DNA from: Stentor roeselii
Lineage: Eukaryota; Ciliophora; Heterotrichea; Heterotrichida; Stentoridae
DNA length: 64,000 nt
Reading direction: 5' to 3'
NCBI GenBank assembly: GCA_006503475.1
Contig: RSEH01000032.1
Coordinates: 62,001 to 126,000 of the forward strand
The notes under the pieces are model-generated. The model ran no database searches. It was not told the DNA's origin and worked only from the letters and a program-made list of their open reading frames with translations. Below are positions 808 through 64,000 of the stretch, in pieces. A program made the position numbers and the translations under genes. Within the stretch, counting starts at the first letter, position 1; each line of letters opens with the position of its first letter.

Positions 808-1878
808 CTAAAAATATTGAGTCTTACACACAGGACAAAATTTGTAATATCCAAGAGCAACAGCCTCATAAGCACATTTTCCGTGAAACGCGTGGCCACA
901 AGGTAATACTCTAGTTTCCACTTCTCTGCTAAACAAAGTAGAGCAAAACAAGCAGACCTCTTGTCCAAGATATTTTCCAGTTTCATCAAGAATGACTAAT
1001 TTTACCTCATTGATGAAATTATGAACATCGATGACTCTTCCAGGAGCCTGATTTGGAGGTAAAGGGTTTTGAGGATAAGGCTGATAAACTGGGTACGCAG
1101 GATTAGGTTGATTATAAAAAACTGGAGCAGGCACTGGGTTGATAACAACTCCTGGAGTATGAACTACTGCATTTGTCTGATGAACAACTAAGTTCTGTGC
1201 AGGCGTGTGATGATTTCTTCTGAACCTCACCCACCATCTTCTTCGAATGCAGCAAGTGACACAGATGACGATGCTGAATAGAGATTACAAGATCAAGAAG
1301 ACTATACTAATCACGACTCCAATGATAGTACCTGCAATGCTTGAACTGGAACTACTGTCTTTTTCGCAATCGTGGTTTTTTAGGGTATAGCTTGATTTGC
1401 ATTCGTAGCAATAATCGTAATCATAACAGTCTTTGCAGCCGTCACTACACTCAAAACAGTATCCAGATGATAGGTAATACCCGTAGTAGCAACCGGTGCA
1501 GCTTCCGGAATAACAATAATTGCAGTTTGAATCACAGTAAAGACTTCTTTCATTTTTTTCATTCGAGTCTTTCAAACATTCAAATGGCTCGAAGCAGATA
1601 CAGTCTGAGAAACAGTCCGCCTCGCAAAAACTATTTGACAAATGATACCCGTTTTTGCATGTCAGGCATTCTTTTTCCATATTCTGCACTTCGCAGTTGG
1701 ATATCTTGAAGTTGTTTGAGGAGCCTGAGAATTTACATCCTGAACTTGATAAATCGTAAAAAGAAGCACATTGAAGACAGAGTTCAGCAGAGGATGGAGA
1801 ACAATAATCACAATTTTCTACATGGCATAAGTTCGCTTCAGTTTGAACTAAAGAGATTATCAGAGCAGCAGAAAACAT
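808..1878 (-). CDS. Single-pass membrane protein: Cys-rich ectodomain, TM, cytosolic RING-H2
   Basis: Removing a 15-nt intron (1274-1288) joins two adjacent frames into one 351-residue protein. Residues 1-15 look like a signal peptide. Residues 18-170 carry dense Cys pairs spaced as in furin-like or growth-factor-receptor-type repeats common in ciliate surface proteins. A Ser run precedes a transmembrane helix at about 180-206, followed by a basic CIRRRWW stop-transfer stretch. A Pro-rich linker leads to a C3H2C3 RING at about 304-346 (C, C, C, H, H, C, C, C all present, ending CPVC). By family knowledge the RING suggests a membrane E3 ubiquitin ligase. The overall plan recalls PA-TM-RING ligases but with a Cys-rich instead of a PA ectodomain. 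The start follows ATATAAATG. The ligase role is inference. Confidence 0.85.
1274..1288 (-). other. 15-nt spliceosomal intron
   Basis: On the minus strand the sequence is GTAATCTCTATTCAG, with GT and AG ends and length 15. Unspliced it brings in an in-frame TAA. Removed, it fuses the end of a transmembrane helix to its basic cytosolic flank and keeps a single frame through to the RING finger. Introns of 15-16 nt are known from heterotrich ciliates such as Stentor. Confidence 0.9.
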
Positions 1879-2044
1879 TTATATGAGAAAATAATCATTT
1901 TAAGGATGATTGAATTTTATGAGTTTTCAGAATTAAAAGAATTTAACAGTGAAAAAGAGTTTTATAGCCTCAATACCAGCAACCATATCCTAAAAAGACT
2001 TCAAAGCCAAGCCGAAACATGCTACCCGAAAATCTAAAATTCAA

Positions 2045-2290
2045 TTACTTTAAATTATTAAAACTAAGAATACTGACTCTCCAATCATATTTATCTTCCA
2101 AGGCAATAAAATCAGAGACGCATTTACCATGAAAGGCATCCACAAGCAAGACTAAAGTTTCCACATCTTAAAAGATCTCTAAATACAAAACAAGTAAATC
2201 TTCCAGAGTATTTTTCTCTTCATCAAGAATGAGAAGTTTGAATTTATCATAAAATGATCAGAATTGATAACTTTTAATGAATTATGATAA
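2045..2290 (-). pseudogene. Decayed copy of the RING-protein C-terminus
   Basis: Minus-strand translation gives KVINSDHF, then after a frame change DKFKLLILDEEKNTLEDLL, then DVETLVLLVDAFHGKC and a stop. This follows the live gene's RVIDVHNF, NEVKLVILDETGKYLGQ and EVETRVLPCGHAFHGKC in the same order and spacing. Most zinc-binding Cys are gone, and there is an in-frame stop and one frame shift. It lies in the same orientation upstream of the live gene, so it is probably an old tandem duplicate. No trace of the matching ectodomain was found further upstream. Confidence 0.75.
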
Positions 2291-3097
2291 TTAAGTTCAA
2301 CTTAAGTAGAGATCTAAATTTTTATCCTTATAATTTTCAGGGTGTTAAATAATGTAAAAGTTCCCTCTCATGAAAGAAGGTATAGATTTGGTTTAATTAT
2401 AAGGAAAAATTCTAAGAAAAAGGGAATTTCTCTCACTGGACACCAAACGGAAATATTCAATTTATAAATTTAAAAATACTTCAGCTTATGGAAATAATAG
2501 TGCACATTTAATAAAAGTAGTTTGTATTCATGTTTTTAAGGATACTGGAGATTTGCTTCCGGGTCTGAGTTTAAAACTTAAACACCGGATACTCAATCAT
2601 TTTCTTTACTTTCAACATTTTACCATTTTGAATGAACATTTAAATTTGTTAAAATAACAGCTCATGAACTTTAATCAAGTGATTCTTGTTTCGAAATAGA
2701 GTGATCCTTGTTAATCTAAATAAATATCGTTTATAAAGAATATAAATTGAATGGACTCCTTTAGTAAAAAGTTCTCAAGAATGAATAAATAATAAAAAGT
2801 ATTTCTTTCTTTTGTATCCTAGATTTATTTGCCTAAAGACTCAATGTTAAAGAACTAATCCTTTATAAATTTTATTATAAGTATTGAAAACATGTTAAAT
2901 TAAAAATTCAGTCTCTTGTTATTCGAGTTATCTTTAGTAAATTTTCCATGTATCTAAGTAATAGACCTTATTTGATAAAAATAATTCAACCTGAGCAAAT
3001 ACAAAGAATTATTTAATATTATTCTTTTTCTCTCATTCTGTTTAGTAATAGTATCTTAGAAATTCAAATTGAAATCGATAATTGTTTAGGTTTAGAC
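2291..3097. other. Intergenic DNA, nothing recognised
   Basis: No coding frame stands out. A GGATACT string appears twice (about 2541 and 2587) around a slightly GC-richer patch. The ectodomain half of the decayed RING gene could have been here, but I cannot see it. Confidence 0.5.
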
Positions 3098-5152: not shown

Positions 5153-6194
5153 ATAAATATTAGATAAATCAGGAGTAGTTATTAAGAAAAGTTTAAGATC
5201 TATAAAATATAATAAATCATTTATTATGATTTAACTTGGTAAGTCTTAAATTTTGGTTTTCATGTAAGATATTTTTATGATACTCGAGAAGTTAGAATTT
5301 AAAGGCCTGCCCATCATTAAAGACTGAGTATTATAACTACTTCAGACAATAAAACTGAAATCAAAGAGTCAATTATAAAACTCAAAAGCTATTCAATGTT
5401 AAGATCTTTAAAAATTTTAATTTATAGCAATAGACTAGGTCTAATTAGAATGGTTTAAAAATTTAAGTGATATCAAAATAATAATTTTATTCTTTCATCA
5501 TTACTATTCTATCAAAAGAGGTTCCAAGTCAAATGAAAAGAATACAAAAAAACCTTTAAATTAATGTAACCTTAGGCAGGTACATCGATGAAATTGATTT
5601 AGGGTTTAAGTATTAATAAAAAAGATAAAATTTCAAATTATATTCTTGAAAGCATTTCAAATTTATACACTTAAATAGAGGTGAATACTGCTGAAGAATA
5701 CTAACATCTATTCATATTCAAGAAAGTAACTTAACAAACTTGTATAGAATTGAAAGTCCTTCGCTAGATAAATTGAAGATTAATGAATAAAAGAATAATA
5801 GTTTCATTTTAAGATAAGGGTTTGGAAAGGAACAAGATTATTGAATATATATGATGCGCATTAATAATAAATGTATAGAGGATAATTTTTAAATAGGATT
5901 GAATAATTTAGAGAAATAGATGTATTGGATTTATGTTAAATCTGAAGAAGATTTAAGTCTTCGATAAACGGTTATAATAGATTGAAATCGTTTTTGGCTA
6001 TTAGATAGAGTCAAAAACGAAAAGGTTTGAAAAGTCTGAAATAATATTTTTAATATTTACAAAAGCCTTTCTAAAAAAGTTTGATCAAATTGAAGGTAAA
6101 ATTCTTTTCATTGAAAAGAATCTCATCAAAATGATAAAAATTTCATTTTCATCTTTCATGAGTTCTGGAAAAATGGATATAATATAGAATAAAT
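5153..6194. other. Intergenic DNA, nothing recognised
   Basis: About 1 kb of AT-rich DNA separates the WD40 gene from the polytopic membrane protein. I saw no convincing coding relic, repeat or RNA gene. Confidence 0.5.
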
Positions 6195-9100
6195 ATGAGA
6201 GACACCAAAATATTGTCAAAAGCGATAAATCTAACATTGTTCCTTATAGGCACAATAATTTTCTACTCAATATCAAATCCAAAGAACTCTGAGTACACTT
6301 TACCAATGATTCTATCTCTAAACATCTCATTGCTAGTCTCCCTTCTCTATTCATTATTCAATTCAAAATTCGATCCCTACTTAAAAAAAAATCCATTTCT
6401 CACCCTCTACACTCCAGAAAACTCTGAATTCCAAAAGTTTTCCCTAAGCAAACTAGGTCTAGCATCTCTTCTCATCTTCACTTTCCTCTCCAGTACAATT
6501 CTGTCATTTTCCCAAACATCTTGGTCCTGTTTTTTTTTCTTCGCAAGTCCTCCATCAATCTACTTGATCCACCTTTTAGAATTTTCTCTTCAACCGAATC
6601 CAATTCGTTTATTTTATTTCGTAACACCCTTATTATTAATCCTAGGACTGTTAATCCTGTTCTTTTCAGAGACCCCTTTAGAAGACTTCTCTAAAATCAA
6701 GATAATTTTAGGGTTTTTGACTACCTTCGGCATTATTTTAACTGGAGTGCTTTATCATTTAGTGTTAAATTGTAAGACTTCTAAGATTTTAGCATCTTTG
6801 ACGACTTTTGTACTTTTTATTATTCTTGCTGTGGGACTTGCGAATGGAAGTGAGAAGAATGATAAAGAAACAGTGAATCTTTGCTTGTTTTTCGCAGTTG
6901 GGGTTCCAATGGTGCTGATTATTTCAAGTGTTTATATAAGATATGATATCAGTGCAGAGTTGAAAAATTCGATTTTTTTAGTGCTTTGGACTTGTTTTTA
7001 TGTGCCTTGCATGGCTTTAGTATCTTTCAACCAGTTGTCTGGAGAACAGGATCATTTAAGTGATGTTGTAAATTTCTCGTTTTTGGCATTTGCTGGGTTT
7101 TCCTTGGTTTTTGAAACTTTAGCTAGAATTCTAAAAAGTGATAGAAGAGAGATGAAGATGGTCTTGGTTTTATGTCTTGTTGTTTTACCATTTAGTATTG
7201 CTGCAGGGTTTATTGGAGTTCATGAGTTTCCAAAGGGCTGTACATTTATTTTAGTTGTTTTAGGCTTTATTGGCGTTGCTTTTCTCTTGATACTTGTTCT
7301 GATAAAGTTTATTTTTGAATCTTTCATGATGTTAAGAATAGATTTTTCTTCGCAAGTTGAAAAAATTTTATGGTTTGATGATAAAATTGTCTTGATTTTT
7401 TCAGTCATTTGGAAATTGTTGTATTTTTTTTCGATGACTTTTTTAACTCGGAGAATTTATTTGTTTGATTTTGAAGGACTTGATTTTGAGTTGTGGCTGG
7501 TGAGTCAAGGATTGATTATTGTTGTTCTTGCAGCAGGACATAGCATTTTATTAGAAAATATCAACTTTTTTATAATGGAAATAGGACATGCATACCCTTC
7601 AGTTAGAAAACATGCAATAATAAATCAGATTATACCTTCGATGTTGCAAGAAAATTATAAAACATTATTAAGAAATATTCAAATTGGGATTGTCATATTT
7701 TTCAATTTATGTGAAATCACAAGTTTTGCTTGTTTTGCAGTATCAAGAGCTATTTACTTTATTGTAATTTTTAACATCATCACAGTTTTTTTGTTTCTTT
7801 TAGGACTTGAAGCAAAATTCAAGACTTGGAATCATGGAAGTAAAATTTCTTCAGAGTTCTTGGTCTTCATCTGGAGTTGCATTTATGTTCCATTTGTTTG
7901 TGGACCTTCAGTTATTTTAAAAACTTCTCATGGCGATAGCTTTGACAATACTTCATCATTGATGATTTTTTTTATAATATTATGTTTTTGTTTGCAACTA
8001 GGGCTGATATCAGGGGAAATCTATGAAAAACTCAGTTCTTCAAAATATGTTAAAATGATTTCGTATTTAGAACAAAAGAAATATTCAATAAACAGCAGAA
8101 ATTTTTTTATCGAAGATTTTATTAATGGAAATAGAAGGCTTTTAGAAAATATTAAAGATATTGAAAATTATGAAAAAAGACATTCATCTAGTGTATGCAA
8201 CATATGTATAAACAATAAAATTCATGAAGTTTCTAATAATCATTATGATTATAATCATTCTGAGCTCTTGAGAATACTATTACTTAAACAGAAAATTAGC
8301 GATAGTGATTCAGAGGATTCACTAAACGAAGATGAGGCTGGACCCAACCAAGAAGAAAAAAAGGATAATGAACGACTAATAATTACAAGAGAAACAATGA
8401 ATTCATATCGAAACTTATTCCGAGTGCCTGAAGGTCAAACTCAAGTAAAAAATGCTGATTTTAATAATGCTGTTTTCAATGTGTATAGAGAACAAATGAC
8501 AAATTTAGGAAAAAATAAAAATGATTTAAGTCTAATATTTTTACAAGTGACTCATAATGTTGGAAGACGAGTGCAAGTTCAACTTAATACTAACTTCATT
8601 AAAAGAATCCTAAGAGGTTTATCAATCTTGATATATCAAAGTAATAATGAAGAAACAATGGCAAGAGTTCAAAAAGAACTACTTGAGAGAAGAAATAGAA
8701 TTGAGTACGAAGAAAATATAGAGGATCAACCTGAAGAACATCAAATAATTCATTCCTCAAACATTTTGATATCAATTTCTAAAATTTATCTTAGAGTAAA
8801 TATCGAAACTAAAAACCTTATTGACCTTCTAGTTCCATATTATTTAATGAAGGTTCAACAAGAATTATTAGAAGAAGAAGAAAGAGTAGCTCTCGATATA
8901 ATAAAAAATGAAGTATTGAATCTTCCTTCAGATTCAATCGATTCTAGTTTTCAAGTTATTCAACTGCTCTTTTTTGCATCTATTTTCAATATGTACTCTC
9001 TTTCTTCTGTTGCTCTTACTCGTGAAATTAGTTGGGCTGGGTCGAAAATATCTTTATCGTCTGGAGTTGTTCCATCTGAAAGTAGCTGGACAGTCTCAAT

Positions 9101-9914
9101 GATCCTAACCTTTACTTTAATATTCTTATTTTTTCTATCAACTCTAGTTTTATTTCTAATGATCAAGAAAAACAAAACAAATGAAACTATAAGAAAATGG
9201 GGAAAATCATTGATGATTGTTATAGCTTCAGGAATGCTCGTTGAAATTCTGATCTTTTTACTATCAAACCTGATTTGTGAAGAAACAGAAGGCAATTCCC
9301 ACATGCAAAACAATGAAGAAATAGAATGTTTTGGGTCAAATCATATAGGAATAATCATCGTTTCTATCATTTCATTCATTATTTACTTTCTATTAGTCCA
9401 AGTCTTCTACCCTAGCTTTTACAAGTTATGTGAAAACTCAGAACATTACTTTAACATCGAAATTTACTCCAAAATGATTTATTCAGCAATTGCAAGTTGC
9501 ATCAGTAAAGAACTACTCGGCTTTAAACTTGTCTTATCGCTAGTCTTAGCTTTGATTTTAACAGTTCATTCAGTTTATCGCATAAATTCAGGAAAATGTG
9601 TGATTTCCAAGTTTAAAAAAGATCTTATCGAGTATTTGATTGTTATTTGGATTTACTTCTGGGCGTTACTTGTTTATTATGAAGTTATTGAAAATAGTGC
9701 CTTTGCTATTTTGATTGTGACGATTATTTTGTATTCGGCTTATGCACAAATCAAATATATTATTAATCTATTGAAAAATATTAAGATTTGCTGTGTTTTT
9801 ATAGTAAATCGTTTGAGATGCTGTAGGAGAAGGACTGAGCAGGTTCAAAATTTACCTGAAGAATGTAATCCAATCAATCCAAATAATCAGACCAAACTTT
9901 CCATAAGAACTTAA
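6195..9914 (+). CDS. Large polytopic membrane protein, family not recognised
   Basis: The 1239-residue protein has roughly twenty hydrophobic segments. They form an N-terminal block (about 10-620) and a C-terminal block (about 930-1200). Between them lies a charged, mostly soluble region (about 625-925) rich in Asp, Glu and Asn, with a CxxC pair (VCNIC) and long predicted helices. No transporter or channel signature is visible to me. The start lies in an A-rich context. The frame is uninterrupted over 3.7 kb, which argues for function. Nucleotide use switches from C/A-rich at the 5' end to G/T-rich near 6720 and back near 9290. Function unknown. Confidence 0.85.
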   Translation: MRDTKILSKAINLTLFLIGTIIFYSISNPKNSEYTLPMILSLNISLLVSLLYSLFNSKFDPYLKKNPFLTLYTPENSEFQKFSLSKLGLASLLIFTFLSSTILSFSQTSWSCFFFFASPPSIYLIHLLEFSLQPNPIRLFYFVTPLLLILGLLILFFSETPLEDFSKIKIILGFLTTFGIILTGVLYHLVLNCKTSKILASLTTFVLFIILAVGLANGSEKNDKETVNLCLFFAVGVPMVLIISSVYIRYDISAELKNSIFLVLWTCFYVPCMALVSFNQLSGEQDHLSDVVNFSFLAFAGFSLVFETLARILKSDRREMKMVLVLCLVVLPFSIAAGFIGVHEFPKGCTFILVVLGFIGVAFLLILVLIKFIFESFMMLRIDFSSQVEKILWFDDKIVLIFSVIWKLLYFFSMTFLTRRIYLFDFEGLDFELWLVSQGLIIVVLAAGHSILLENINFFIMEIGHAYPSVRKHAIINQIIPSMLQENYKTLLRNIQIGIVIFFNLCEITSFACFAVSRAIYFIVIFNIITVFLFLLGLEAKFKTWNHGSKISSEFLVFIWSCIYVPFVCGPSVILKTSHGDSFDNTSSLMIFFIILCFCLQLGLISGEIYEKLSSSKYVKMISYLEQKKYSINSRNFFIEDFINGNRRLLENIKDIENYEKRHSSSVCNICINNKIHEVSNNHYDYNHSELLRILLLKQKISDSDSEDSLNEDEAGPNQEEKKDNERLIITRETMNSYRNLFRVPEGQTQVKNADFNNAVFNVYREQMTNLGKNKNDLSLIFLQVTHNVGRRVQVQLNTNFIKRILRGLSILIYQSNNEETMARVQKELLERRNRIEYEENIEDQPEEHQIIHSSNILISISKIYLRVNIETKNLIDLLVPYYLMKVQQELLEEEERVALDIIKNEVLNLPSDSIDSSFQVIQLLFFASIFNMYSLSSVALTREISWAGSKISLSSGVVPSESSWTVSMILTFTLIFLFFLSTLVLFLMIKKNKTNETIRKWGKSLMIVIASGMLVEILIFLLSNLICEETEGNSHMQNNEEIECFGSNHIGIIIVSIISFIIYFLLVQVFYPSFYKLCENSEHYFNIEIYSKMIYSAIASCISKELLGFKLVLSLVLALILTVHSVYRINSGKCVISKFKKDLIEYLIVIWIYFWALLVYYEVIENSAFAILIVTIILYSAYAQIKYIINLLKNIKICCVFIVNRLRCCRRRTEQVQNLPEECNPINPNNQTKLSIRT

Positions 9915-12318: not shown

Positions 12319-13767
12319 ATACCAAGTCCCAAAAAGCCTAATTCATAAAAATATTCCATTTAAACCCTACTAAATAATTTATTCTGAAATAAACGATATC
12401 ACCTTTTCTTTCCAAATCTTCTTCCAATTCTCTCTCATTAAAGCAAACCAAAATATATCAGCTCTATCCGTCCTATAAACACACCAATCAATTCCATGAA
12501 CCTCCAACTGAAATCCCAATTTTTCAGCAAAGGCAACAGATCGATAGTTTTTATTACAGCACTTCCATTCCACCCTTCTCCATCCATGATTAAAAGCATG
12601 TTCTAGTAAAAGAAATACGGCTTCAGTGCAACACCCAGTTCTTTGAACAGCAGGAGAAACCCACACGACTCCAATTTCGACTTTTTTGTCAATTGGCGAG
12701 TTGTAAGTGTAAGCGAGTGAACCCACTGGCAAGTTTGAAGAAAGCTCAAAGATTGTAAAGACTAAAGTGGCTGGTCTTGAAATGAAGTCTCTGTAAAATG
12801 ATTTCATTTCTTCTGAGGAGATAAAAGGACCGAGGAACATGTATTTCCAGAGAAGTTCCACACTGTCGTAGATTTCGAATGACTTTTTTTTGAATTTGAA
12901 TGGCTTTCCACAGGTAATTTCAAATAAGTATTCAATATCTCGGTCTATGTCCATTGGCAAAAGCTTTACGAATTTTCCAAATAACTCAACAGGTAATGGT
13001 TTTTGGTTCAATCCTTCCATTTTATAAAGTCTTAACTAGCATAATATTAGAAGTAATATAAGACTGGAATAATTCTTTATATTTTCAATATAACTCTTGA
13101 GCCTCCTTTAATAAATCACATTAAATGTTTGATTCTTTTGAAGTTTTACAGAGTTTCTAGTCTTCAATTTTTAAATAATAAATTTTTACCTAAAATTATT
13201 TGCTAATAACATGTATGTATCAGAAATCCTGATAATTCCTGATATCGTTTTAAATATCAAAGTGTTCATTATTTTACGATATTCAGAACATTTACTCTAC
13301 TGAAATCGATATTATTTTAAAACTTTAAAAGCTTCATTACTTAATACTCAAACTGTTTCTAAAACCTAAAACTATTGGATTTTTATCCAAAAGCTAAAAA
13401 TTTTACTATCGATCTGTAATATTAACACAAAGTCTATAATTGTTCCTTTTCTTCATCAGGAAAAAATCTTACTATCTATATTTCTGTAAAATTCATTAAA
13501 TTTCATAAGCCTGGAGTCTTTAACAGAATATTAGATTTTGTTAATATAGGAATTGAAAAATATTATCAGAAATAACTTATTCGACTATGAAAAATGAAGT
13601 CACGTAAAAATTAAAACAATACGGTGATGCTTATCATATGGAGTGATAAAATTATCAAGATTATAACTATATTCCAGGAACTTAAACTGGGTAAATTTAA
13701 AAAAAAATATGAATTTTTTCAAAGTTATAAGCCTTGATTCTTGTTGAGCTTTTTATTTCCTTGATAA
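12319..13767. repeat. Tandem segmental duplication, unit 1
   Basis: A unit of about 1.45 kb, holding the first acetyltransferase gene plus its 3' flank and roughly 750 bp of upstream DNA, is repeated immediately to the right. Non-coding parts still align along their length (for example the strings around 13060-13170 and 14515-14625), so the duplication is fairly recent. Boundaries are approximate. Confidence 0.85.
12379..13020 (-). CDS. GNAT-family N-acetyltransferase (RimJ/RimL-like), copy 1
   Basis: The 213-residue protein has the GNAT core. A beta4 strand VGVVWVSP-like stretch at 117-123 is followed by the acetyl-CoA loop QRTGCC (126-131) and a helix; then comes VEWKCCNKNYRSVAFAEKLGF (150-170), the typical beta5-alpha4 element of RimL-type enzymes that acetylate N-termini or small amines. 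The substrate cannot be read from the sequence. The usual second Gly or Ala of the Q/RxxGxG/A loop is Cys here. Upstream of the start is TTTATAAAATGG. A close paralogue follows at 13832. Confidence 0.85.
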   Translation of the reverse strand: MEGLNQKPLPVELFGKFVKLLPMDIDRDIEYLFEITCGKPFKFKKKSFEIYDSVELLWKYMFLGPFISSEEMKSFYRDFISRPATLVFTIFELSSNLPVGSLAYTYNSPIDKKVEIGVVWVSPAVQRTGCCTEAVFLLLEHAFNHGWRRVEWKCCNKNYRSVAFAEKLGFQLEVHGIDWCVYRTDRADIFWFALMRENWKKIWKEKVISFISE

Positions 13768-15225
13768 GTGATTAGTACCAAGTTCCAAAAAAGCCGAATT
13801 CAAAAATATCCATTTAAAACCTCCTAAATAATTATTCTAAAATCAACGATTTCACCTTATCTTTCCAAATCCTCTCCCAATCCTCTCTCATCAAGGCAAA
13901 CCAAAATCCATCAGCTCTATCCGTCCTATAAACACACCAATCAACTGCATTAATCTCCAACTGAAATCCCATTTTTTCAGCAAATCGAACAGATCGATAG
14001 TTGCTAGTGCAGCACTTCCATTCCACCCTTCGCCATCCATGATTAAAAGCATGTTCTAGTAAAAGAAATACGGCTTCAGTGCAACACCCAGTTCTTTGAA
14101 CAGCAGGAGAAACCCATACGACTCCAATTTCGACTTTTTTGTCAAGTGGTGAATTGCAAATGTAAGCAAGTGAACCCACTGGCAAATTTGAAGAAAGCTC
14201 AAAGATTGTAAAGACTAAAGTGGCTGGTCTTGATATGAAGTCTCTGTAAAATGATTTCATTTCTTCTGAGGAGATGAAAGGGCCGAGAAACATGTATTTC
14301 CAGAGGATTTCTAGACTGTCGAAGCTTTCGAATGACTTGTTTTTGAATGTGAATGGCTTTCCACAGGTAATTTCAAATAAGTATTCAATATCTCGGTCGA
14401 TGTCCATTGGAAGAAGCTTTACGAATTTTCCAAATAATTCAACAGGTTCTGGTTTATCATTCAAGCCTTCCATTATTTATCAAGTCTTATCTAGTATCAT
14501 ATTTAAAGCACTATAAGACTGGAATAATTCTTTATATTCTCAATATAACTCTTGAGCCTTCTTGAATAAATCACATTAAATGTTTGATTCTTTTGAAGTT
14601 TTACAGAGTTTTTAGTCTTCAATTCTTAAATAATAAATTGTTGACCTAAAATTATTTACTAATGATATGTATCTACCAGAAATCCTGATAATTCGTGATA
14701 TCGTTTTAAATATCAAAGTGTTCATTATTTACGATATTTAGAACATTTACTCTACTGAAATCGGTATTATTTTAAAACTTTAAAGGTTCATTACTTCATA
14801 CCCAAACTGTTTCTAAAACCTAAAACTATTGATTTTTTTCGAAAAACTAAAAATTTTACTATCGATCTGTAATATTAACACAAATTTTATAATTGTTCCT
14901 TTTCTTCATCAGAGAAAAATCTTAGTATCTATATTAGTGTAAAATCCATTAAATTTCATAAGCTTAGAGTCTTTTACAGAATATCAGAACTTAGTTAATA
15001 TAGGAATTGAAACACATTATGAGAAATAACTTATCCGACTCTGAAAAATGAAGCCACGTAAAAATTAAAACAATATTTTGATTTTTTAATAAGAAGTGAT
15101 AAATTATCTAAATTATAAACATATTCAAGGAACTTAAACTGAGTATATTAAAAATAAAAACATGAATTTTCCAAAGTGATAAGGCTTGATTCTTGTTGAT
15201 TTTTTTATTTTCCTGATTATTGATT
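13768..15225. repeat. Tandem segmental duplication, unit 2
   Basis: This is the second copy of the roughly 1.45-kb unit. It begins with the same 3' flank (CCAAGTTCC near 13770, CCAAGTCCC near 12322) and ends near 15225, where both copies share a CTTGATTCTTGTTGA string followed by TGATT. Coding and non-coding parts look similarly diverged, apart from one nearly identical block inside the genes. Confidence 0.85.
13832..14473 (-). CDS. GNAT-family N-acetyltransferase, copy 2
   Basis: The 213-residue paralogue of the gene at 12379 has the same length and the same QRTGCC acetyl-CoA loop. Differences cluster in the N-terminal 60 residues and in the segment after the core (INAVDW in place of VHGIDW). 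The block 14046-14143 matches 12593-12690 almost base for base, including silent sites, which suggests recent gene conversion or strong constraint. Both copies are intact and so both are probably expressed. Substrate unknown. Confidence 0.85.
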   Translation of the reverse strand: MEGLNDKPEPVELFGKFVKLLPMDIDRDIEYLFEITCGKPFTFKNKSFESFDSLEILWKYMFLGPFISSEEMKSFYRDFISRPATLVFTIFELSSNLPVGSLAYICNSPLDKKVEIGVVWVSPAVQRTGCCTEAVFLLLEHAFNHGWRRVEWKCCTSNYRSVRFAEKMGFQLEINAVDWCVYRTDRADGFWFALMREDWERIWKDKVKSLILE

Positions 15226-16356: not shown

Positions 16357-18408
16357 ATGGATTGTTCTGATTGTAAGAATCGGGCTTGCTTTCTGTGTGA
16401 CTGCAAAAATATCTACTTTTGTGAAAGTCACATTGTTAATCACTTGAAATTAAATGGTCATCACAACTTACTAAATTTAAAGATCATCTTAAACCAAAAT
16501 GAAAAATATCTTCTTGACAAGGAAATCGATTCAAGAATAACTTTTCTGATAACATTACAACAAGATATCACAAAAAAAACAAAAAAAATAATAGAAAATA
16601 TTAATAAGAAGCATAATTCAGTAATAAATGAACTAAATAAAATCATAGAAAACTATAAAACTCTTAAAAAGACTCATGAATTCGAAAGACCTCAATATGA
16701 AGATATTCAATCAATACTTAAATCAAAAATGACAATAAATTATTCAAATACTTTTACAATAAATCAAGCGATAGATGATTATTATTCAAAAATAATTCAT
16801 GAAATTATAATAGACAATATCCAAGCAAGAAGAGTAGCAAAGCATGAATTTTTTAAAAAATATTGTTCAGATTTTTATTGCATGGCTATTTCTAAGGATG
16901 GAAAAACTCTTGCAACTGGATCACATGACAGTTGTATTAGGATTTGGGATACTCAGAGAAAAGAAGTGGGGACATGTTTTACTCGTCATAAAGATTTGGT
17001 AAGCTCTTTGGCATTTTCTCCTGATGATTCTTTAATAGCCTCTGGCTCCTCTGATAGAACAGTGATTCTATGGAATTTGACTGATAAAAAATTAATAGAA
17101 ATTACCTAGGACACACTGGAGAAGTTACAATGGTTTTATTTAAGTAACTCTGATTTTATAATATCCGGAAGTTCTGAAAATGAATTGATGTTATGGCGAA
17201 CTAGTTCCGATAATGTTTTTAAGAGAATAATTGTTGATGGAAAGATAAGATGTGGCATAATTATTGGAAATAATACCCTGGCTTTAGGAATTGCTTCTAA
17301 TTTAAATTTTTGGAATATATCGGTATTTGAACCAGAATCATTGAAATTTTCTGTTGAATGTGATATTAATTACTTAGCATATTGTGAAAAAAATAGTTTA
17401 CTCGCTGTAGCAGTGAAAGAAAATATAAATATTTTATCAATTAGACAAAATAAAACCATAGTAACCTTTTCAGGACATAGAGATTATGTAAATTCGATTT
17501 CAATTAGTGTAGATGATGATATTTTGGTTTCAGGTTCAAAAGATTCTTATATAATTATATGGTCGCTAACAAAAAAATGCTTGTTATCTAAGATTAGTAA
17601 TCACAATATGCCAATTAATGATGTTAAAATACACAAAGGCTTGCTATTCATAGCATCTGAATTTTGCAGTATCGGAATAGTTTTTTTATCAAATTTATCA
17701 TTAATCTCAAATTTTAGCTTAAAACAATTTGATAATAAAACTCAATATGCAAGAAATAATTTAGTTTCTTTCGGTCATTATGAAGATCTTCATCTATTCA
17801 ATATAAACAAAAATGAAAACACTATATTTAAGGGTCATTCTTGATTAATAATTAGTAGTTTCATTTCTCTGTCAATGAAATTATTAATAAGCTCATCCAA
17901 AGGATATAAAAATAACTTAATTCTTTGGGACTTAAGCACATTATCAATGATCACAATCATGAAAGGACATGGAAATTCAGTTTACTGTGTCGATATCTCT
18001 AATAATGATTTATTTGCTATTTCAGGAGATTATAACGGGACTGTGATTTTATGGAGTCTCTTAAATATCCCTCAAAAATTCATTTTGCAAAGGAGTGGAG
18101 AAATCGTATTTTCTGTCAAGTTTTCCAAAACTTCGAAATTTGCTGCTTCTAGTGGGTTTGATAAAAAATTTTATGTTTGGGATATTGAAAAAAAAAATTT
18201 GAATGCTATTTTTGATCAGAATGTTGATTATATAAGGAATATATGGGGAAGTGATGATGATAAATATTTTCTGTATCAGCAGCAATTTCGTAAAGTTGTG
18301 ATTTGGAATATCGATAAAAAGAAAGTAGATCAAGTACTAGAGAATCAGAATGAATTAATGAATTGGGTTGAAAATTATATTGATTTAGAATTAGAATTAG
18401 AATTTTAA
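16357..18408 (+). pseudogene. B-box/coiled-coil/WD40 gene, recently broken copy
   Basis: The sequence aligns end to end with the intact paralogue at 24178: B-box-like Cys/His cluster (residues 1-40), coiled coil, then WD40 blades. It is interrupted in two places. Near 17104 and 17148 two compensating single-base indels move about 45 bases out of frame and bring in a TAG (17107-17109). At 17842-17844 there is an in-frame TGA within the blade beginning FKGHS. No 15-16-nt GT-AG intron explains either break. The promoter element and TATAAATGG start context are retained, so decay is recent. If the breaks were sequencing errors the gene would be whole. Confidence 0.75.
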
Positions 18409-21584: not shown

Positions 21585-23649
21585 CTAAAAATCTAAAATA
21601 AATTCAGCTTCTAATTCTTTATACTCACTAAGAAAACAATTTAATTCACTTTCATTTTTCAGTTCTCTCTCTAACCAAACTTCATTAATATTCCAAATAA
21701 ATTTTTCACCGTGCTTGATCTGATAAACAAAATATTTAAAATCATCACTTAACCAAATTTTCCTTATAGGATATTGATTCTGATCTATAACAGCAACCAA
21801 TTGTTTATCTCTGAGATTCCAAACGCAAAATCTTTTATCTTTTCCTCCAGAAGCTGCGTATTTAGAATCTTTATCAAACTTTATACATGTTACCATATCT
21901 TCATGACCTTTGAAAGTAATTTCTTTATTTAGATTGGTAATATTGAATAAAACGATTATTCCACTTACATCTCCTGAAATTCCATATAGATCATTATTAG
22001 ATATATCAATACAAGATACTGAATCATAATGAGCGTCCAAAGCACAGATCATAGATAATGACTTAAGATCCCATAAAATTAAGTTTTTTGAATTTCCTGA
22101 TGATGAACTGATCAATAAATTCATTGATAAAGAAATGTAAACAGTATTTACAAAATTTTCATGCCCTTTCAAAACAATAATATCATCATAATTTTTCTCA
22201 TCACATATCAAAATGTCCTCATTGAAGCCAAAAGCTATCAAATTTTTTCTAAAATGTTGAGAATAAGAATTATACCCATGCAATTTTATAAATGATTCAA
22301 AAGATAGAGTTGATATTCTCGTAATACCGATTCTATCATCATTTGCTCCTGAAAAAATAAAATCTCCATGAGTCTTGACAATCATTATATAATCTGTATG
22401 GAAACAAAATTTTTGGATTAGTGAATAAGTTTTTAGAGACCATAAGATTATAGTTGAATCCTGAGAGCCAGAAGCTAAATAATTATCATCTTTTGTTATT
22501 GATAATGAATTAACTGAGTCAGTGTGCCCATTTAATGTAGCTTCGAGGTTTTCATTCCGAATTGAATAAATTAAAATGTTCTTAATGGCAGCTACAGCGA
22601 CAATTTCACAATCATTTGTAACATCTAGTGCTAAAATAATTTCTAAGTCAGGAATAATCAGTGACATTTTCGAACTCAAATTTGTAACATCCAAAATATC
22701 AACATAATTACCTATTGCTAAAACACAGAAATCATTATATTTTATCGTTGCACATAATAAATAACTATAAACAAATTTTTTTTATTAATTCATTAGAATC
22801 AGTTCTCCATAGCATCAGTTCCATATTCAAACTACCAGATAATATAAATGTTGATTCATTTGTGAGTAAAACAAAACTTATTTCTTTTGAATGACCAGAG
22901 TACGATCTTATAATATTTTTTTCTTTAAAACTCCACAAAATTATTGTTCTATCCCAAGAGCCTGAAACAAATAAATTATTATCAAGAGACAAATCAAGGC
23001 AGGTCACCTTACTTTTATGATTTGTAAGACATGAGATTAGTGTATGAGTAGGAAGATCCCAGATTCTGATGCAGCTATCATCAGAACCTGCTATTAAAGT
23101 ATTTCCATCACTTGAAATAGCCATACAAATAAAACTTGAGCAGTACTTTTTTAAAAAATTTAATTTTCTAATCTTGGTAGTTTCTACTTCGTCACTTGTA
23201 ATATCATAGAGCTGCTTTGAATAAAATGCATCAATTTCTCTTTTAACTGAACGAGTATTTATATAATTTAAAGAGAGTTTAGAGTTAATGATTGATCGTA
23301 TTTCATTAATATTTGAAGTTTTTATATTTTTTGTATTTTTTAATTCTATGTAATGTTTTAGGAGATTATTGATTTCTTGTAAAGTTTTTTTACTTTTTTC
23401 TTCTATAATTTTAATTAGATGTACAGCATTTTTGATAATTTTTTGCTCAATCTGTATTAAAGTTTTGATTCTTGCATTTAGTTCTTTTTCAAGAAGGATT
23501 TTATCATTTGAATCTAGTTTAATACTTAAATTTTCTAAATCATGCTTGAGGTTTAGCTTCAAGTGGTTAACAATATCGATATCACAAAGGTAGGTGCTAT
23601 TACAGTGACAGAAGAAAGAAGGGTTATATTTACAATCGAAACAATCCAT
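21585..23649 (-). CDS. B-box/coiled-coil/12-blade WD40 protein, one A-run frame slip
   Basis: Two leftward frames (23649-22765, 294 aa; 22694-21585, 369 aa) together match the intact 687-residue paralogue at 24178 throughout. They meet at a run of eight A (eight T on the plus strand, 22776-22783). With seven A the frame would run on from KK into YSYLLCATIKYNDFCVL, the expected blade 4. No other defect is visible. Domains: B-box-like CxxC...C.C...CDID cluster (1-37), coiled coil (about 50-135), then WD40 blades. It is either functional with a sequencing error, or a very young pseudogene. It lies head to head with the intact copy, 528 bp apart. The family's role is presumably scaffolding or ubiquitin-related, by analogy with TRIM proteins; that is inference. 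Confidence 0.75.
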
Positions 23650-24177: not shown

Positions 24178-26241
24178 ATGGATTGTTCAGATTGTAAAAA
24201 TAAGCCTTCTTTCTTATGTCGCTGTAGTAACACCTACCTATGTGATATCCATGTTCTTAACCACTTGAAACTGAACCTCAAGCATGATTTAGAAAATTTG
24301 AAAATTACTATAGACTCAAATGATAAAATTCTTCTTGATAAAGAACTAGATGAAAGAATCATTACTTTAACACAGCTTGAGCAGAAAATTATCGAAAAAA
24401 CTAAATATATAATTAAGAAAATAGAAGAAAAAAGTAATTATGCTATAAAAGAAATAAATGGTACCATAAATCATTACAAACACTTAAAAACTATAAAAGA
24501 TATAGAAAAATCCAATATTGATGAAATAAATTCAATCATTTACTCAAAACTTTCATTAAATTATTTAAATACTAATTCGTTAATTAAAGCAATTGAAACA
24601 TTTTACTCTAGAAATTTCTATAATTTTGTAAGTCACAATGTGGAAACTAGTATAAATATAAAAATTAAATTTTTAGAAAAACACTGTTCAGTATTTAGTT
24701 GTCTAGCTATTTCAAACGATGAGAAAACTTTAATATCAGGGTCTAGTGATAGCTCTATACGTATATGGGACCTTCAAACAAAATCTTTGATCTCATGTCT
24801 TACAAATCATAAAAGTAAGGTAACCTGTCTCTCATTGTCACTTGATAATGATTTGTTTGTCTCAGGCTCTTGCGATAGAACAATCATTTTGTGGAGTTTA
24901 AATGAAAAAAGTTTTAAAAGATTGTATTGTGGCCATTCAGAAACATTAAATTTTGTTCTACTCACAAATGACTCAACATTTATATTATCTGGTAGTCGCA
25001 ATATGGAACTAATGCTGTGGAAAACTGAAAGTAATGAATTATTAAAAAAAATTATAGTTCATGATTATCTATCATGTGCAACAATAAAATCCAATAATTT
25101 CTGTGTTTTAGGAATCGGTAATTCTTTTGAGGTTTGGGATATTAATAATTTGAGCTCAAAATTATCAATTGGCCCTGAAATAGAATATATAACATTAATA
25201 GATGTTACTAGCGATTGTGAAACTGCTGCATTAGTTGTAGATAATGATACTTTAATATATTCAATTAGTAAAAAAGTAATCTTAGGTAGACTTACTGGAC
25301 ACTCTGACTCAGTCAATTCAATATCAATAACATACGATGATAAGATTTTAGTATCTGGGTCTTCAGATGAAACAATTATGTTATGGTCTCTTATAGATTA
25401 CTCTATTATACATCAATTTTTTTTACATACAGATGAAGTATATTTTGTTAAAACTTCTGGAGATTTAATTTATTCAGGTGGAAATGATGATAAAATCGTC
25501 ATAACTAGAATATCATCTCTATCTCTTGAATATATTCTAGAATTGCATGGATATAATTCTAATACTCAACATTTTATAAAAAATTTAACAGCTTTTGGCC
25601 TATATAATGATATTTTGATATGTGATGAAGAATATCCTGATGATACTATTGTTTTGAAAGGCCATGAAAATTTTGTAAATACTGTTTACATTTCTCAATC
25701 AATGAATTTATTGATCAGTTCATCATCAGGAAATTCAAAAAACTTAATACTATGGGATCTTAAATCATTGTCTATGATCTGTCCTTTGGAAGCTCATTTT
25801 GATTCGGTAATTTGTACTCAAATATCCAATAATGATCTATACGCAATTTCAGGAGATGTAAGTGGAACAATCGTTTTATGGAATATTACCGATTTAAATA
25901 AAGAAGTTACTTTTGAAGGTCATGAAGATACAGTAGCATGTGTAAAGTTTGATAAAGATTCTAAATACGCAGCTTCTGGAGGAAATGATAAAAAATTTTG
26001 CGTTTGGAATGTCAGAGATAAACAATTGGTTACTGTTATAGATCAGCATCAAAATTTTATAAGAAAAATTTTTTTGAGCGATGATTCTAAATATTTTGTG
26101 TATCAGATCAATCACGCTGAACAATTTATTTGGAATATTAATGAAGTTCGGTTAGAGAGAGAACTGAAAAATGAAAGTGAATTAAATTGTTTTCTTAGTG
26201 AGTATAAAGAATTAGAAGCCGAATTTATTTTAGATTTTTAG
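24178..26241 (+). CDS. B-box/coiled-coil/12-blade WD40 protein, intact family member
   Basis: This 687-residue protein is the only fully open member of the local family. Residues 3-36 hold a B-box-like zinc-binding pattern (C3, C6, C14, C16, C22, H25, H29, H36). Residues about 45-135 are charged and probably coiled-coil. From about 170 onward twelve WD40-type blades can be counted, several with clear GH...D...IW signatures (SGSSDSSIRIWDL, SGSCDRTIILWSL) and others degenerate; twelve blades could form two propellers. The C-terminus is acidic. The order B-box, coil, propeller recalls TRIM-type proteins without a RING. WD40 propellers bind partners; the partner here is unknown. The start follows GGATTATAAATGG. 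Confidence 0.9.
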   Translation: MDCSDCKNKPSFLCRCSNTYLCDIHVLNHLKLNLKHDLENLKITIDSNDKILLDKELDERIITLTQLEQKIIEKTKYIIKKIEEKSNYAIKEINGTINHYKHLKTIKDIEKSNIDEINSIIYSKLSLNYLNTNSLIKAIETFYSRNFYNFVSHNVETSINIKIKFLEKHCSVFSCLAISNDEKTLISGSSDSSIRIWDLQTKSLISCLTNHKSKVTCLSLSLDNDLFVSGSCDRTIILWSLNEKSFKRLYCGHSETLNFVLLTNDSTFILSGSRNMELMLWKTESNELLKKIIVHDYLSCATIKSNNFCVLGIGNSFEVWDINNLSSKLSIGPEIEYITLIDVTSDCETAALVVDNDTLIYSISKKVILGRLTGHSDSVNSISITYDDKILVSGSSDETIMLWSLIDYSIIHQFFLHTDEVYFVKTSGDLIYSGGNDDKIVITRISSLSLEYILELHGYNSNTQHFIKNLTAFGLYNDILICDEEYPDDTIVLKGHENFVNTVYISQSMNLLISSSSGNSKNLILWDLKSLSMICPLEAHFDSVICTQISNNDLYAISGDVSGTIVLWNITDLNKEVTFEGHEDTVACVKFDKDSKYAASGGNDKKFCVWNVRDKQLVTVIDQHQNFIRKIFLSDDSKYFVYQINHAEQFIWNINEVRLERELKNESELNCFLSEYKELEAEFILDF

Positions 26242-37704: not shown

Positions 37705-38349
37705 CTAAATAAAAAATACCTTCAAAAAGTCCTCAACAACCTCATCATACTTGCTATTTAAAAAAACAGCTTCAAAAGCCTTTCTTTTCAACTTCCTCTG
37801 ATAAAAGTCTTCAAAAAGCTGAGAAAGTTCAAAGCTAGAACAATAATAACTCATCATCCCATTCAACCCTTTTTCTAAAGTTTTTCTCCTCCAGTGGGCC
37901 TCAGCCTTGGCTGAGGCTTGAAAATCAGGAATTTCTTGCAAGACTTGTAAAATTTCTTTATTTTTAGAACAGTTGAAGTGAATTTTAAGTCCTTCCAGGA
38001 CTTTAAAAAGGGTTTTTATCTTAACGAATTGTGAAAGCTTTTCTTTTTGATGAATAAAAAGTGACTTTAACACCTCAAATGTTGGTCTTAGTTTAGAAAA
38101 AGCTGTAATTCTTCGAATTTTCTCGAAACCGTCGACGAGGTTGACTGATGTTTGTCTTAGTACCTCGAGGTAAGCGATTTGACTTAAGGATTTCGTGTGA
38201 TTCATCTTTTTTGGAAGACTTACGAGCTTTGAACGGATCATTGGTTTTTTTGTCACTGGGGAATTTCGAGGGAGTCGGGATTTTTCAGGAGTTTTTATTG
38301 GACTTGTTGAACCTTTTTTCACTTCTTTTGCAGTTCTTGAGGCATTCAT
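37705..38349 (-). CDS. Basic helical protein, possibly Sfi1-like
   Basis: The 214-residue protein has a basic Ser/Pro/Lys N-terminus (1-50) and then helical sequence with repeated bulky residues, for example AHWRRKTLEKGL and FYQRKLKRKAFEAVF. These resemble the centrin-binding repeats of Sfi1-type proteins, but the repeats are few and imperfect. If so it would bind centrin at basal bodies or contractile fibres; that is speculative. Confidence 0.55.
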   Translation of the reverse strand: MNASRTAKEVKKGSTSPIKTPEKSRLPRNSPVTKKPMIRSKLVSLPKKMNHTKSLSQIAYLEVLRQTSVNLVDGFEKIRRITAFSKLRPTFEVLKSLFIHQKEKLSQFVKIKTLFKVLEGLKIHFNCSKNKEILQVLQEIPDFQASAKAEAHWRRKTLEKGLNGMMSYYCSSFELSQLFEDFYQRKLKRKAFEAVFLNSKYDEVVEDFLKVFFI

Positions 38350-49794: not shown

Positions 49795-50208
49795 ATGGAG
49801 TTCAAGTGCTATTACTCAGATTGCTCAAGAAGCTACAACTCGAAATACAACCTAAAGCGCCACATAAATACGAACCATTTATGTCTGAAAAATTATCCAT
49901 GCGACCAATGCGGAAGAATCTTCGCCAGTAAGAAAAACGTGATGAAGCACAAAGTCAGTCACAGCGACATCGTCCTCGACTCAGGTCCGAAGCCGAAAGC
50001 TTTGAAAAATTTGCAAGGTTTAGACTTAAACGTGGAAATCCAGCCAATAGTCCTTAGCCGGCTTTATGTCGACGTGATTCCTTGTTTATTGAACCCTGTT
50101 TCTAATAAACAAAGTCTACCGTCTTTAGCACCTGTTGACCTTTGTAGAATCAGTCATCAGTCAAATGGAAAAATCCCTTTGCTTCCTATTCTGCTTGATC
50201 ATATATAG
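49795..50208 (+). CDS. Two-finger C2H2 zinc-finger protein, copy 1
   Basis: The 137-residue protein starts directly with two classical C2H2 fingers: CYYSDCSRSYNSKYNLKRHINTNH (5-28) and CDQCGRIFASKKNVMKHKVSH (36-56). A less conserved linker and a C-terminal segment shared with copy 2 follow (SNKQSLPSLAPVD and IPLLPILLDHI). Two fingers can bind DNA or RNA; the targets are unknown. The start lies in TATAAATGGAG, identical in copy 2. Ends at TAG. Confidence 0.85.
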   Translation: MEFKCYYSDCSRSYNSKYNLKRHINTNHLCLKNYPCDQCGRIFASKKNVMKHKVSHSDIVLDSGPKPKALKNLQGLDLNVEIQPIVLSRLYVDVIPCLLNPVSNKQSLPSLAPVDLCRISHQSNGKIPLLPILLDHI

Positions 50209-51693: not shown

Positions 51694-52110
51694 ATGGAGT
51701 TCAAATGCTATTACCAAGATTGCTCAAGGAGCTACAATTCTAAATACAACTTGAAGCGTCACATAAACACGAATCACTTATGCTTGAAGTCCTACCCTTG
51801 CGACCAATGCGGAAGAGTTTTCGCAAGCAAGAAGAACGTGCTGAACCATAAAGCCAGCCACAATGACATCGTCCTTGAAGGCAGTTTAAACCTAAAAGGA
51901 AGAAGACGAAAGAAGAACAAGTCTTTGTTAGTCGAAATACAACCAATTCTTCTCAGTCGTCTTTACATTGAAGAAAATCCACGCAACATTTACAACCCAG
52001 TTATCAACAAACAAAGCCTTCCGTCATTGGCACCTGTTGACGTGTGTCGGAAGAATCATCAGTCTGGTGGGAAAATTCCACTTTTACCTGTTTTAATCGA
52101 CCACATCTGA
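51694..52110 (+). CDS. Two-finger C2H2 zinc-finger protein, copy 2
   Basis: The 138-residue paralogue of the gene at 49795 has nearly identical fingers and the same C-terminal SLPSLAPVD...IPLLPVLIDHI. The linker differs and is more basic here (KGRRRKKNK). It stops at TGA where copy 1 stops at TAG, so both codons are stops in this organism. Confidence 0.85.
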   Translation: MEFKCYYQDCSRSYNSKYNLKRHINTNHLCLKSYPCDQCGRVFASKKNVLNHKASHNDIVLEGSLNLKGRRRKKNKSLLVEIQPILLSRLYIEENPRNIYNPVINKQSLPSLAPVDVCRKNHQSGGKIPLLPVLIDHI

Positions 52111-54011: not shown

Positions 54012-55613
54012 TAAAATTATTGAATTAAAGTATCTTAGAGTGAATATTGATCATTTTTTAGAATTTAATTATTAGGTTAAGTTTTATTTAAAGAATTTGT
54101 TTGGATGGAAGGTTGATTGGAATCTTTACAATTTTAAGTAATATGGAATATTTGAATAAGGATAGTTTCTAAAAATCTTTAGAAATGAGATATTATTAAA
54201 GAAATCGATTTTTTAAATATTATGAGTAAAAGCAGGCTTCATCTGGTATTTAAAGTATCGTATGTCGGGATTCTTATTAACGAGAATTATTAATTATTAT
54301 CATGATTAGAATAATTAGTTTTAGGTTTATTTGAATCTGTCATTTCTGCTTACAAATAATTTTAACATCTATTCTCGATGCAGAGACTAAAAGTATCGGA
54401 ACATTATTCTATATTAGATGAAAGCACAGAATTCGATCATCACATGAAGATACTGCGTTTTTAAAGTTATCATAAAACATTGACACAAAGATATGAATTT
54501 TATGAGTAATAAAAACAATATTTAGATCAATTCACAATAAATCAAAATTTCATCATTCTATGTCTATATTTCAGTTTTATCATCTTATTACAATTTAAGT
54601 TCCTCTAGATTAAGGGGATTAAATTTTTTCTTTACCTTCTACCAACTAATCAAGAAATCCTTTGATGGAGAGATGCAAGTGTAACCAGTTCAAAAATCTT
54701 AAATTCTGAGGAATTATTAATTTTTTTAGTTTCTTATCAAGAATTTATTGAATGATAGAAAAATTTAGATGATTTCTTAGAAGGGTTAAATGAGATCTTT
54801 TCTTAACTGTAAATTTAAGAGGGCATCTTGATATTTCTAAAATTCTCATAATTCTTTTGATATAGAGAATATTTATTTTGAATTCATTAATATCATGGAT
54901 ACTCTTTAGTTGAAATAAATTATTCTTTATTTTTCACTGATAAACTAATATGAAATCTTGTAAATAATCCAAAAATAAATTATTCTTAAAAATCTTAGAC
55001 TCGAAGCTTTGCTCTATGTTGAATTTCCGCGTTTTTTATTCTAAAATAAATCAAGGGAGATTAACTAAATGGATAAATATTTCAAATTATCAAGTAAATA
55101 ATTTTTGGATGTAGAAAGATCCTTAAAGTAAATCAAATTTAAGTAAGTTTCTTTTTTTTTCATCGATATTAAATTTTAAGTTATATTCATTTCGAAATAG
55201 TGTAAAAATCGTTTCAAGTTGTAGTATTTTGCTGTGATATTTTGAATTTAGATGGTGATCTGAATAATGATGACAAATTTGATATTTGATCTCCAAAGAA
55301 AAGTAATCATTTATATGAAATGGATTGTTAATTATTTTCGATAAAACAACTTAATTGTATAGTAAATGAGACCAATTTAGAACTCAGAAAGATAAATTTT
55401 AATGAACGGCCAAACTCATCAAGCCTTCTAATTAAAATATTTAAAATTCATAATATTTGATCCAAACTCCTTAAAATTCATTAAAAATTACTTATATTTG
55501 TCTAATTCATTTCAAAAAATTTTGATCAAATTTATATAAAAAAACATTAAACTAAAATCTCGATCTAAAACCATTTTTCAATTTCCAATATGGCATATAA
55601 TAAATAAAACGAT
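54012..55613. other. Long intergenic region, nothing certain
   Basis: The 1.6 kb of AT-rich DNA lie between the starts of two divergent genes. A short string near 55240 reads NLDGDLNNDDKFDI and recalls an EF-hand loop, so a CDPK relic is conceivable, but I could not find kinase motifs with it. Confidence 0.45.
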
Positions 55614-62540: not shown

Positions 62541-62557
62541 TTTATTGCATTATCCTA

Positions 62558-63967: not shown

Positions 63968-64000
63968 TTTGAATTATTTATTGCTATTCTATTTTGATAT

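What the first reader, a model, noticed from the sequence alone, without database searches (positions are those of the whole stretch)
808..1878. Cys-rich receptor-like ectodomain fused to a cytosolic RING-H2 across a 15-nt intron
Splicing one 15-nt intron turns two apparently separate frames into a single-pass membrane protein: signal peptide, furin-like Cys repeats, TM, Pro-rich linker, RING-H2. This would be a membrane E3 ligase whose outer domain differs from the usual PA domain, i.e. a possible receptor-type ligase. An annotator ignoring tiny introns would split it and miss the link.
Basis: partly seen in the sequence, partly recalled or inferred. Interest (0 to 1): 0.75.

Follow-up and report, generated by a model that had tools for sequence, protein, structure and literature searches.

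The report
Furin-repeat membrane RING ubiquitin ligase, ciliate
A ciliate gene interrupted by one 15-base intron appears to encode a single-pass membrane protein with an outer cysteine-rich, furin-like domain and an inner ubiquitin-ligase RING domain; the build is sensible but its job is untested.

Summary
On the minus strand, 1878..808, one 15-nt GTA...A10...AG intron (1288..1274) removes a TAA and joins two open frames into a 351-residue protein. It fits the published Stentor coeruleus rule. Of 9007 stop triplets in the window, 31 are spanned by such a motif; of 3 stops with at least 100 open codons on both sides, only this one is. The second frame has no Met, and the intron splits one transmembrane helix. 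The RING-H2 passes Pfam's cut-off. A profile of four outer Cys repeats finds R-spondin-2's furin repeat (E 2.7e-5); two column-permuted controls do not, though single-sequence searches of the ectodomain find nothing firm. No PA domain was found. Upstream lies a decayed copy of the RING end.

Best reading: a type I membrane E3 whose furin-like ectodomain binds a partner that its cytosolic RING ubiquitinates. Anatomy well supported; splicing, ligase activity and receptor role inferred. Analogues: PA-TM-RING proteins, ZNRF3/RNF43 with R-spondin, plant ATLs. New variant of a known kind.

The parts
808..1878 (-). whole gene, two exons, 351-aa product
1289..1878 (-). exon 1 (signal peptide, ectodomain, first part of TM)
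1834..1878 (-). putative signal peptide, aa 1-15; cleavage after TEA is inferred
   Evidence: read by eye from the translation; no signal-peptide program was available
1732..1833 (-). furin-like repeat A, aa 16-49
1624..1695 (-). furin-like repeat B, aa 62-85
1456..1536 (-). furin-like repeat C, aa 115-141
1366..1437 (-). furin-like repeat D, aa 148-171
1246..1335 (-). transmembrane segment, aa 182-206, split by the intron
   Evidence: Kyte-Doolittle 19-residue maximum 3.34 at aa 188-206
1274..1288 (-). 15-nt intron GTAATCTCTATTCAG, phase 2, holds the in-frame TAA
   Evidence: rule from PMC9505925
808..1273 (-). exon 2 (rest of TM, basic stop-transfer, linker, RING, stop TAG)
964..1245 (-). 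basic juxtamembrane stretch and proline-rich linker, aa 207-300
826..954 (-). RING-H2, aa 304-346, C-x2-C-x14-C-x1-H-x2-H-x2-C-x12-C-x2-C
   Evidence: Pfam PF13639 E 1.8e-7, 31.8 bits over cut-off 27.3; PDB RNF13 E 3.2e-5; pattern
2064..2275 (-). decayed second copy of the pre-RING and RING end, down to the stop codon
   Evidence: tblastn E 4.9e-4; local DNA alignment score 107.5, best of 200 shuffles 45.5

Best explanation
The gene makes a type I single-pass membrane RING-H2 ubiquitin ligase. A signal peptide delivers the four-repeat furin-like (R-spondin-type) ectodomain to the lumen or cell surface; one transmembrane helix and a basic stop-transfer stretch leave a proline-rich linker and a C-terminal RING-H2 in the cytosol. 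The ectodomain binds a soluble ligand or the outer part of another membrane protein; the RING recruits an E2 charged with ubiquitin and tags that partner (or itself) for endocytosis and vacuolar breakdown. Shown by sequence: the joined frame, the intron motif, the repeats, the transmembrane segment, the RING ligands. Inferred: splicing in the cell, location, E2 binding, the partner, and the outcome.
For: Intron fits 15 nt, GUA, A10, AG (rule); 31 of 9007 stop triplets are spanned by such a motif. Exon 2 has no Met. One TM helix is completed only across the junction (hydropathy maximum 3.34). Ectodomain aa 17-180 has 25 acidic and 11 basic residues, and aa 208-222 after the TM have 5 basic and 0 acidic: N-out, C-in. 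RING-H2 above Pfam's cut-off with all eight zinc ligands, the CPxC proline and a basic residue after the last Cys (K347); that these two matter for E2 use is recalled. The repeat profile finds R-spondin-2 at E 2.7e-5; 0 of 2 permuted profiles do. The neighbouring copy has decayed (stop and indels) while this one is open over 351 codons, which suggests it is kept by selection.
Against: No transcript. No relative found in viral contigs or prokaryote genomes, so no conservation test; those are not where a ciliate relative would be expected. Exon 2 has no positive codon-usage score (-2.4). The RING lacks the Trp that ATLs have after the sixth ligand (rule). The ectodomain as a single sequence finds no furin-like family: Pfam VSP at E 0.18 and 0.072 only, PDB one unrelated chain at E 0.85; of the 4 repeats scanned singly, one matches VSP at E 0.011 and one Furin-like_2 at E 0.78. 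Structure models are poor (mean pLDDT 45.2 and 43.4).
Confidence: 0.62

Rival explanations
1. A spliced single-pass protein, as above, but with no ligand: an outer domain for luminal recognition of cargo in sorting or membrane quality control rather than a receptor, or a RING that acts as a scaffold.
For: Membrane RING proteins are known from the secretory and endocytic compartments (PMC4021871, start of abstract, passages); no ligand is known here.
Against: Nothing tested here separates this from the receptor-like reading.
Confidence: 0.27
2. The TAA is a nonsense mutation in a decaying gene, and the 15-nt motif is a coincidence; the locus is a pseudogene like its neighbour.
For: A decayed copy of the RING end lies 185 bases upstream, and a WD40 paralogue in the same window carries two in-frame stops at 17107 and 17842. 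Exon 2 has a codon-usage score slightly below zero.
Against: Those two stops are not spanned by any GT-N11-AG 15-mer; this one is, with GTA and A10; 31 of 9007 by chance. No frameshift or other stop in 351 codons, all RING ligands and the repeats intact.
Confidence: 0.06
3. Two separate genes: a Cys-rich membrane or secreted protein ending at TAA 1287..1285, and a separate RING protein.
For: The frame does end there if no splicing occurs.
Against: No Met at all in the second frame; each half carries part of one hydrophobic segment.
Confidence: 0.03
4. TAA is read through or is a sense codon here, so the 15 bases are translated and the fused protein has five more residues in the TM.
For: 15 is a multiple of three, so read-through stays in frame.
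Against: If TAA were a sense codon, many long frames would be joined across TAA; of 3 stops with 100 open codons on both sides only this one is TAA, and at 60 codons 4 of 8 are. The exact intron motif would be unexplained.
Confidence: 0.02

Closest known systems
PA-TM-RING family (RNF13, RNF128/GRAIL, RNF130/Goliath; plant RMR, placed here from recall)
   Same: Signal peptide, outer domain, TM, cytosolic RING-H2 (PMC4021871, passages); RNF13's RING is the best PDB hit (E 3.2e-5)
   Different: The outer domain is furin-like repeats; no PA domain hit to E 1
ZNRF3/RNF43 with R-spondin
   Same: Membrane RING E3 whose outer side works with R-spondin furin repeats; R-spondin-2 is the best PDB match of the repeat profile
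   Different: There the furin repeats are a secreted ligand acting in trans (PMC3905715, abstract and passages); here they are in the same chain as the RING, and the only similarity to these ligases that was found is the RING (ZNRF3 RING E 0.023)
Plant ATL RING-H2 ligases, including one with a Cys-rich GUB_WAK_bind domain (VviATL144)
   Same: Membrane RING-H2 family, in that case with a Cys-rich domain as well (PMC5133618, passages); that this domain lies outside the membrane is inferred
   Different: ATL ligand spacing and Trp are not met; the Cys-rich domain is of another family (no such hit)
Cys-rich furin-like surface proteins of protists (Giardia VSP; Tetrahymena mating-type proteins)
   Same: CxxC-rich outer repeats; VSP is the only Pfam hit of the ectodomain (E 0.072)
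   Different: Those lack a cytosolic RING (recalled; PMC3608545 seen only in the search listing)

Membership tests
Stentor-type tiny intron | 15 or 16 nt, GUA start, branch A at 10 (15-nt class), AG end | tested here: met
   GTAATCTCTATTCAG, against PMC9505925 (passages)
Stentor-type tiny intron | removed from mRNA | not testable with these tools
   no RNA reads held
RING-H2 E3 ligase | eight ligands C3H2C3 in RING spacing; Pfam cut-off | tested here: met
RING-H2 E3 ligase | ubiquitin transfer with an E2 | not testable with these tools
   needs a bench test
PA-TM-RING | protease-associated outer domain | tested here: not met
   no PA family among Pfam hits to E 1; definition from PMC4021871 (passages)
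PA-TM-RING | TM followed by RING-H2 | tested here: met
Furin-like repeat (R-spondin type) | repeat profile matches known furin repeats | tested here: met
   R-spondin-2 E 2.7e-5; 13 of the 21 sequences listed to E 10 are R-spondins; 0 of 2 permuted profiles find one
Furin-like repeat (R-spondin type) | Pfam furin-like cut-off | tested here: not met
   no furin-like family among hits to E 10 for the 165-aa ectodomain; 1 of 4 single repeats matches PF15913 at E 0.78
Plant ATL | fixed RING-H2 spacing and Trp three residues after ligand 6 | tested here: not met
   12 residues between ligands 6 and 7, ATL-type pattern false; no Trp there; rule from PMC3161093 (passages)
ZNRF3/RNF43 | ectodomain that binds R-spondin Fu1 | tested here: inconclusive
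   no PA-like hit; the fold was not resolved; binding not testable

The most novel reading that the evidence does not exclude
One gene gives a receptor and its decoy by regulated retention of the 15-nt intron: splicing makes the furin-repeat RING ligase, while retention ends the chain after a Ser-rich stretch and a short hydrophobic tail (a truncated TM, or a GPI-type signal; the likeness to a GPI signal is recalled and untested), leaving an ectodomain without RING that competes for the same partner.
Probability: 0.04. Interest if true: 0.75.

Novelty: new variant of a known kind. Interest (0 to 1): 0.42.

Why it matters
If true, it shows a membrane ubiquitin ligase outside animals and plants with furin-like repeats, the module that in vertebrate R-spondins controls ZNRF3/RNF43 from outside, built into the same chain as the RING. 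In Stentor, where gene knock-down by RNAi exists (PMC7830263 and PMC13254835, title and start of abstract in the listing), that would be a single candidate gene linking an outer signal to ubiquitination.

Tried and rejected
TAA read as a sense codon was rejected: long frames in the window end in TAA, TAG and TGA, and few long frames are joined across TAA (kept as a rival at 0.02). My first scan for coding-flanked introns gave zero at every length because the cut-off was too strict, and it printed an exon 2 score in the wrong frame; redone. A general excess of 15-nt GT-AG introns over other lengths is not visible in this window: with at least 25 open codons each side there are 7 cases at 15 nt against 6 at 12 and 11 at 18, and with at least 50 there are 2 at 15 nt, of which the one with positive codon scores on both sides is 53061-53075, not this intron. 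So the case rests on the match to the published rule and on this one site. One other candidate with GTA and A10, 37719..37705, was seen in that census and not followed.

Searches for relatives gave no match in viral contigs, and in genome contigs 7 pattern matches with 0 of 7 confirmed. Rfam and tRNA scans gave nothing. Single-sequence structure models were too poor to search with, so no fold search was run. The ectodomain and linker were sought beside the decayed RING copy and not found: exon 1 scored 38 and the linker 22.5, against best shuffles of 47 and 37. The stretch searched (1890-3090) was chosen after the copy had been seen by eye and by tblastn. Paper searches for a ciliate RING with a furin-like or cysteine-rich outer domain showed none by title and abstract start in their listings (20, 15, 15 and 2 rows shown of 33, 565, 95 and 2 papers), which is not proof of absence. 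The C-x2-C-x3-[YF]-x-L-x4-C pattern was drawn from the sequence itself, so its 0 of 100000 shuffles is after the fact; the looser C-x2-C-x10-C pattern, 5 occurrences, was reached by 17 of 100000. The repeat units for the profile were also cut by eye. The label B-box in my note is a guess by eye and not borne out by the rows shown.

Full report
What is there. The gene runs on the minus strand from the ATG at 1878 to the TAG at 810..808. A TAA directly precedes the ATG in frame, so the start is fixed unless there is a further upstream exon. Without splicing the frame ends at TAA 1287..1285; removing the 15 bases 1288..1274, GTAATCTCTATTCAG, gives 351 residues. Long frames in the window end in TAA, TAG and TGA, and 38 frames of at least 150 codons exist under the standard stops. 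With the tiny intron this points to Stentor; the species is inferred, and no genome is held for the window.

Is the intron real? In Stentor coeruleus 8173 of 8806 annotated introns are 15 nt; in 8005 introns the branch A is at position 10 of a 15-nt intron, and the first three bases GUA are stringently conserved (PMC9505925, passages). The candidate has all of these. Of 9007 stop triplets in the window, both strands, 31 (0.34%) are spanned by a GTA...A10...AG 15-mer whose removal leaves no stop at the junction. Of 3 stops with at least 100 open codons on both sides, only this one is spanned; the other two, 17107 and 17842, sit in a WD40 paralogue whose relative at 24178-26238 is open throughout. 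With at least 75 open codons it is 1 of 4, with 60 1 of 8, and with 50 2 of 28 by any GT-AG 15-mer and 1 of 28 by the canonical form. Two features of the protein support the join independently: the second frame has no methionine, so it cannot begin alone at ATG, and the intron lies inside a hydrophobic segment that is completed only by splicing. Retention of a 3n intron that carries an in-frame stop can still be caught by nonsense-mediated decay (review of Paramecium, PMC11334263, passages), so the TAA itself is unremarkable.

Against this: 15-nt GT-AG segments with in-frame stops are not more common here than other lengths, and exon 2 in the spliced frame has a codon-usage score of -2.4, better than the other frames (-58.9, -32.1) but not positive, while exon 1 has +21.1. 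The window shows few introns, and a census in 64 kb has little power.

The protein. Residues 1-15 look like a signal peptide (by eye). The ectodomain has 26 cysteines between residues 18 and 171, with four units C-x2-C-x3-[YF]-x-L-x4-C at 34, 71, 127 and 157. Searched as a single sequence it finds no furin-like family: Pfam gives Giardia VSP at E 0.072, below cut-off, and the PDB one unrelated chain at E 0.85. A profile built from the four units finds R-spondin-2 furin repeats in the PDB at E 2.7e-5; of 21 sequences listed to E 10, 7 are R-spondin-2 (E 2.7e-5 to 0.032), 6 are R-spondin-1 (E 0.1 to 0.21) and 8 are other proteins (E 0.22 and up). Two profiles with the cysteine columns kept and the other ungapped columns permuted find no R-spondin (best E 1.2 and 0.14, other proteins). 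So the similarity is more than cysteine spacing. The transmembrane segment is aa 182-206; the residues after it are strongly basic, and the ectodomain is acidic, which fits RING inside. Aa 208-300 hold 14 prolines, then follows a RING-H2 with all eight ligands, 31.8 bits against a Pfam cut-off of 27.3, closest in the PDB to RNF13. Structure models from single sequences were poor; only the last part of exon 1 (aa 131-197, block means 54 to 83) shows strands and a helix at the membrane segment, which is compatible with furin repeats but no proof.

A second copy. At 2275..2064, same strand, lies a stretch colinear with the pre-RING and RING end down to the stop codon, with an in-frame stop and indels (tblastn E 4.9e-4; DNA score 107.5 against at most 45.5 in 200 shuffles). 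No linker or ectodomain could be found beside it. This looks like a tandem duplicate in decay. It makes the openness of the present gene more telling, and suggests a family with gene gain and loss.

How it most likely works. By anatomy it is a type I membrane ligase: the outer furin repeats bind something, and the inner RING brings ubiquitin to it. [quoted passage not shown] Here the furin module is in cis. That is an analogy, not descent: the only similarity to those ligases that was found is the RING, and furin-like repeats are widespread (recalled). Whether the ectodomain senses a ligand, picks a membrane substrate or recognises luminal cargo cannot be told from sequence.

What is known. 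PA-TM-RING proteins share the layout but are defined by a PA domain (PMC4021871, passages), which was not found here. Plant ATLs share TM and RING-H2, and one grapevine member has a cysteine-rich GUB_WAK_bind domain (PMC5133618, passages); the ATL spacing and Trp are not met here. I therefore file it as a new variant of single-pass membrane RING-H2 ligases and not as a member of either family. My paper searches showed no description of this combination in ciliates, in open-licence papers only and only in the rows listed; public databases of predicted ciliate proteins, which may well hold similar entries, could not be searched.

Noticed in passing
2064-2275 (minus): Decayed tandem copy of the RING end, colinear to the stop codon.
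   Followed up: yes
16357-18405 (plus): WD40 paralogue with two in-frame stops (17107, 17842), 292 identical of 690 aligned columns with the open gene at 24178-26238; neither stop lies in a 15-nt GT-AG segment.
   Followed up: partly
21588-23649 (minus): Apparently another member of the same WD40 family, split into two overlapping frames, so probably frameshifted (only 21588-22781 was scanned).
   Followed up: no
37705-37719 (minus): GTATTTTTTATTTAG, a second canonical 15-nt candidate intron at the end of a 226-codon frame, adding 21 codons.
   Followed up: no
55608-63973: Cluster of protein kinases with EF hands (calcium-dependent kinase type): three scanned with Pfam (55608, 61104, 62561), a fourth at 57633 similar by its start.
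   Followed up: no
12382-13035 and 13835-14476 (minus): Tandem pair of GNAT acetyltransferase genes.
   Followed up: no
49795-50205 and 51694-52107 (plus): Two C2H2 zinc-finger genes, near-identical in the starts shown (Pfam for the first only).
   Followed up: no
6183-9911 (plus): Open frame of 1243 codons with no Pfam match listed to E 10.
   Followed up: no
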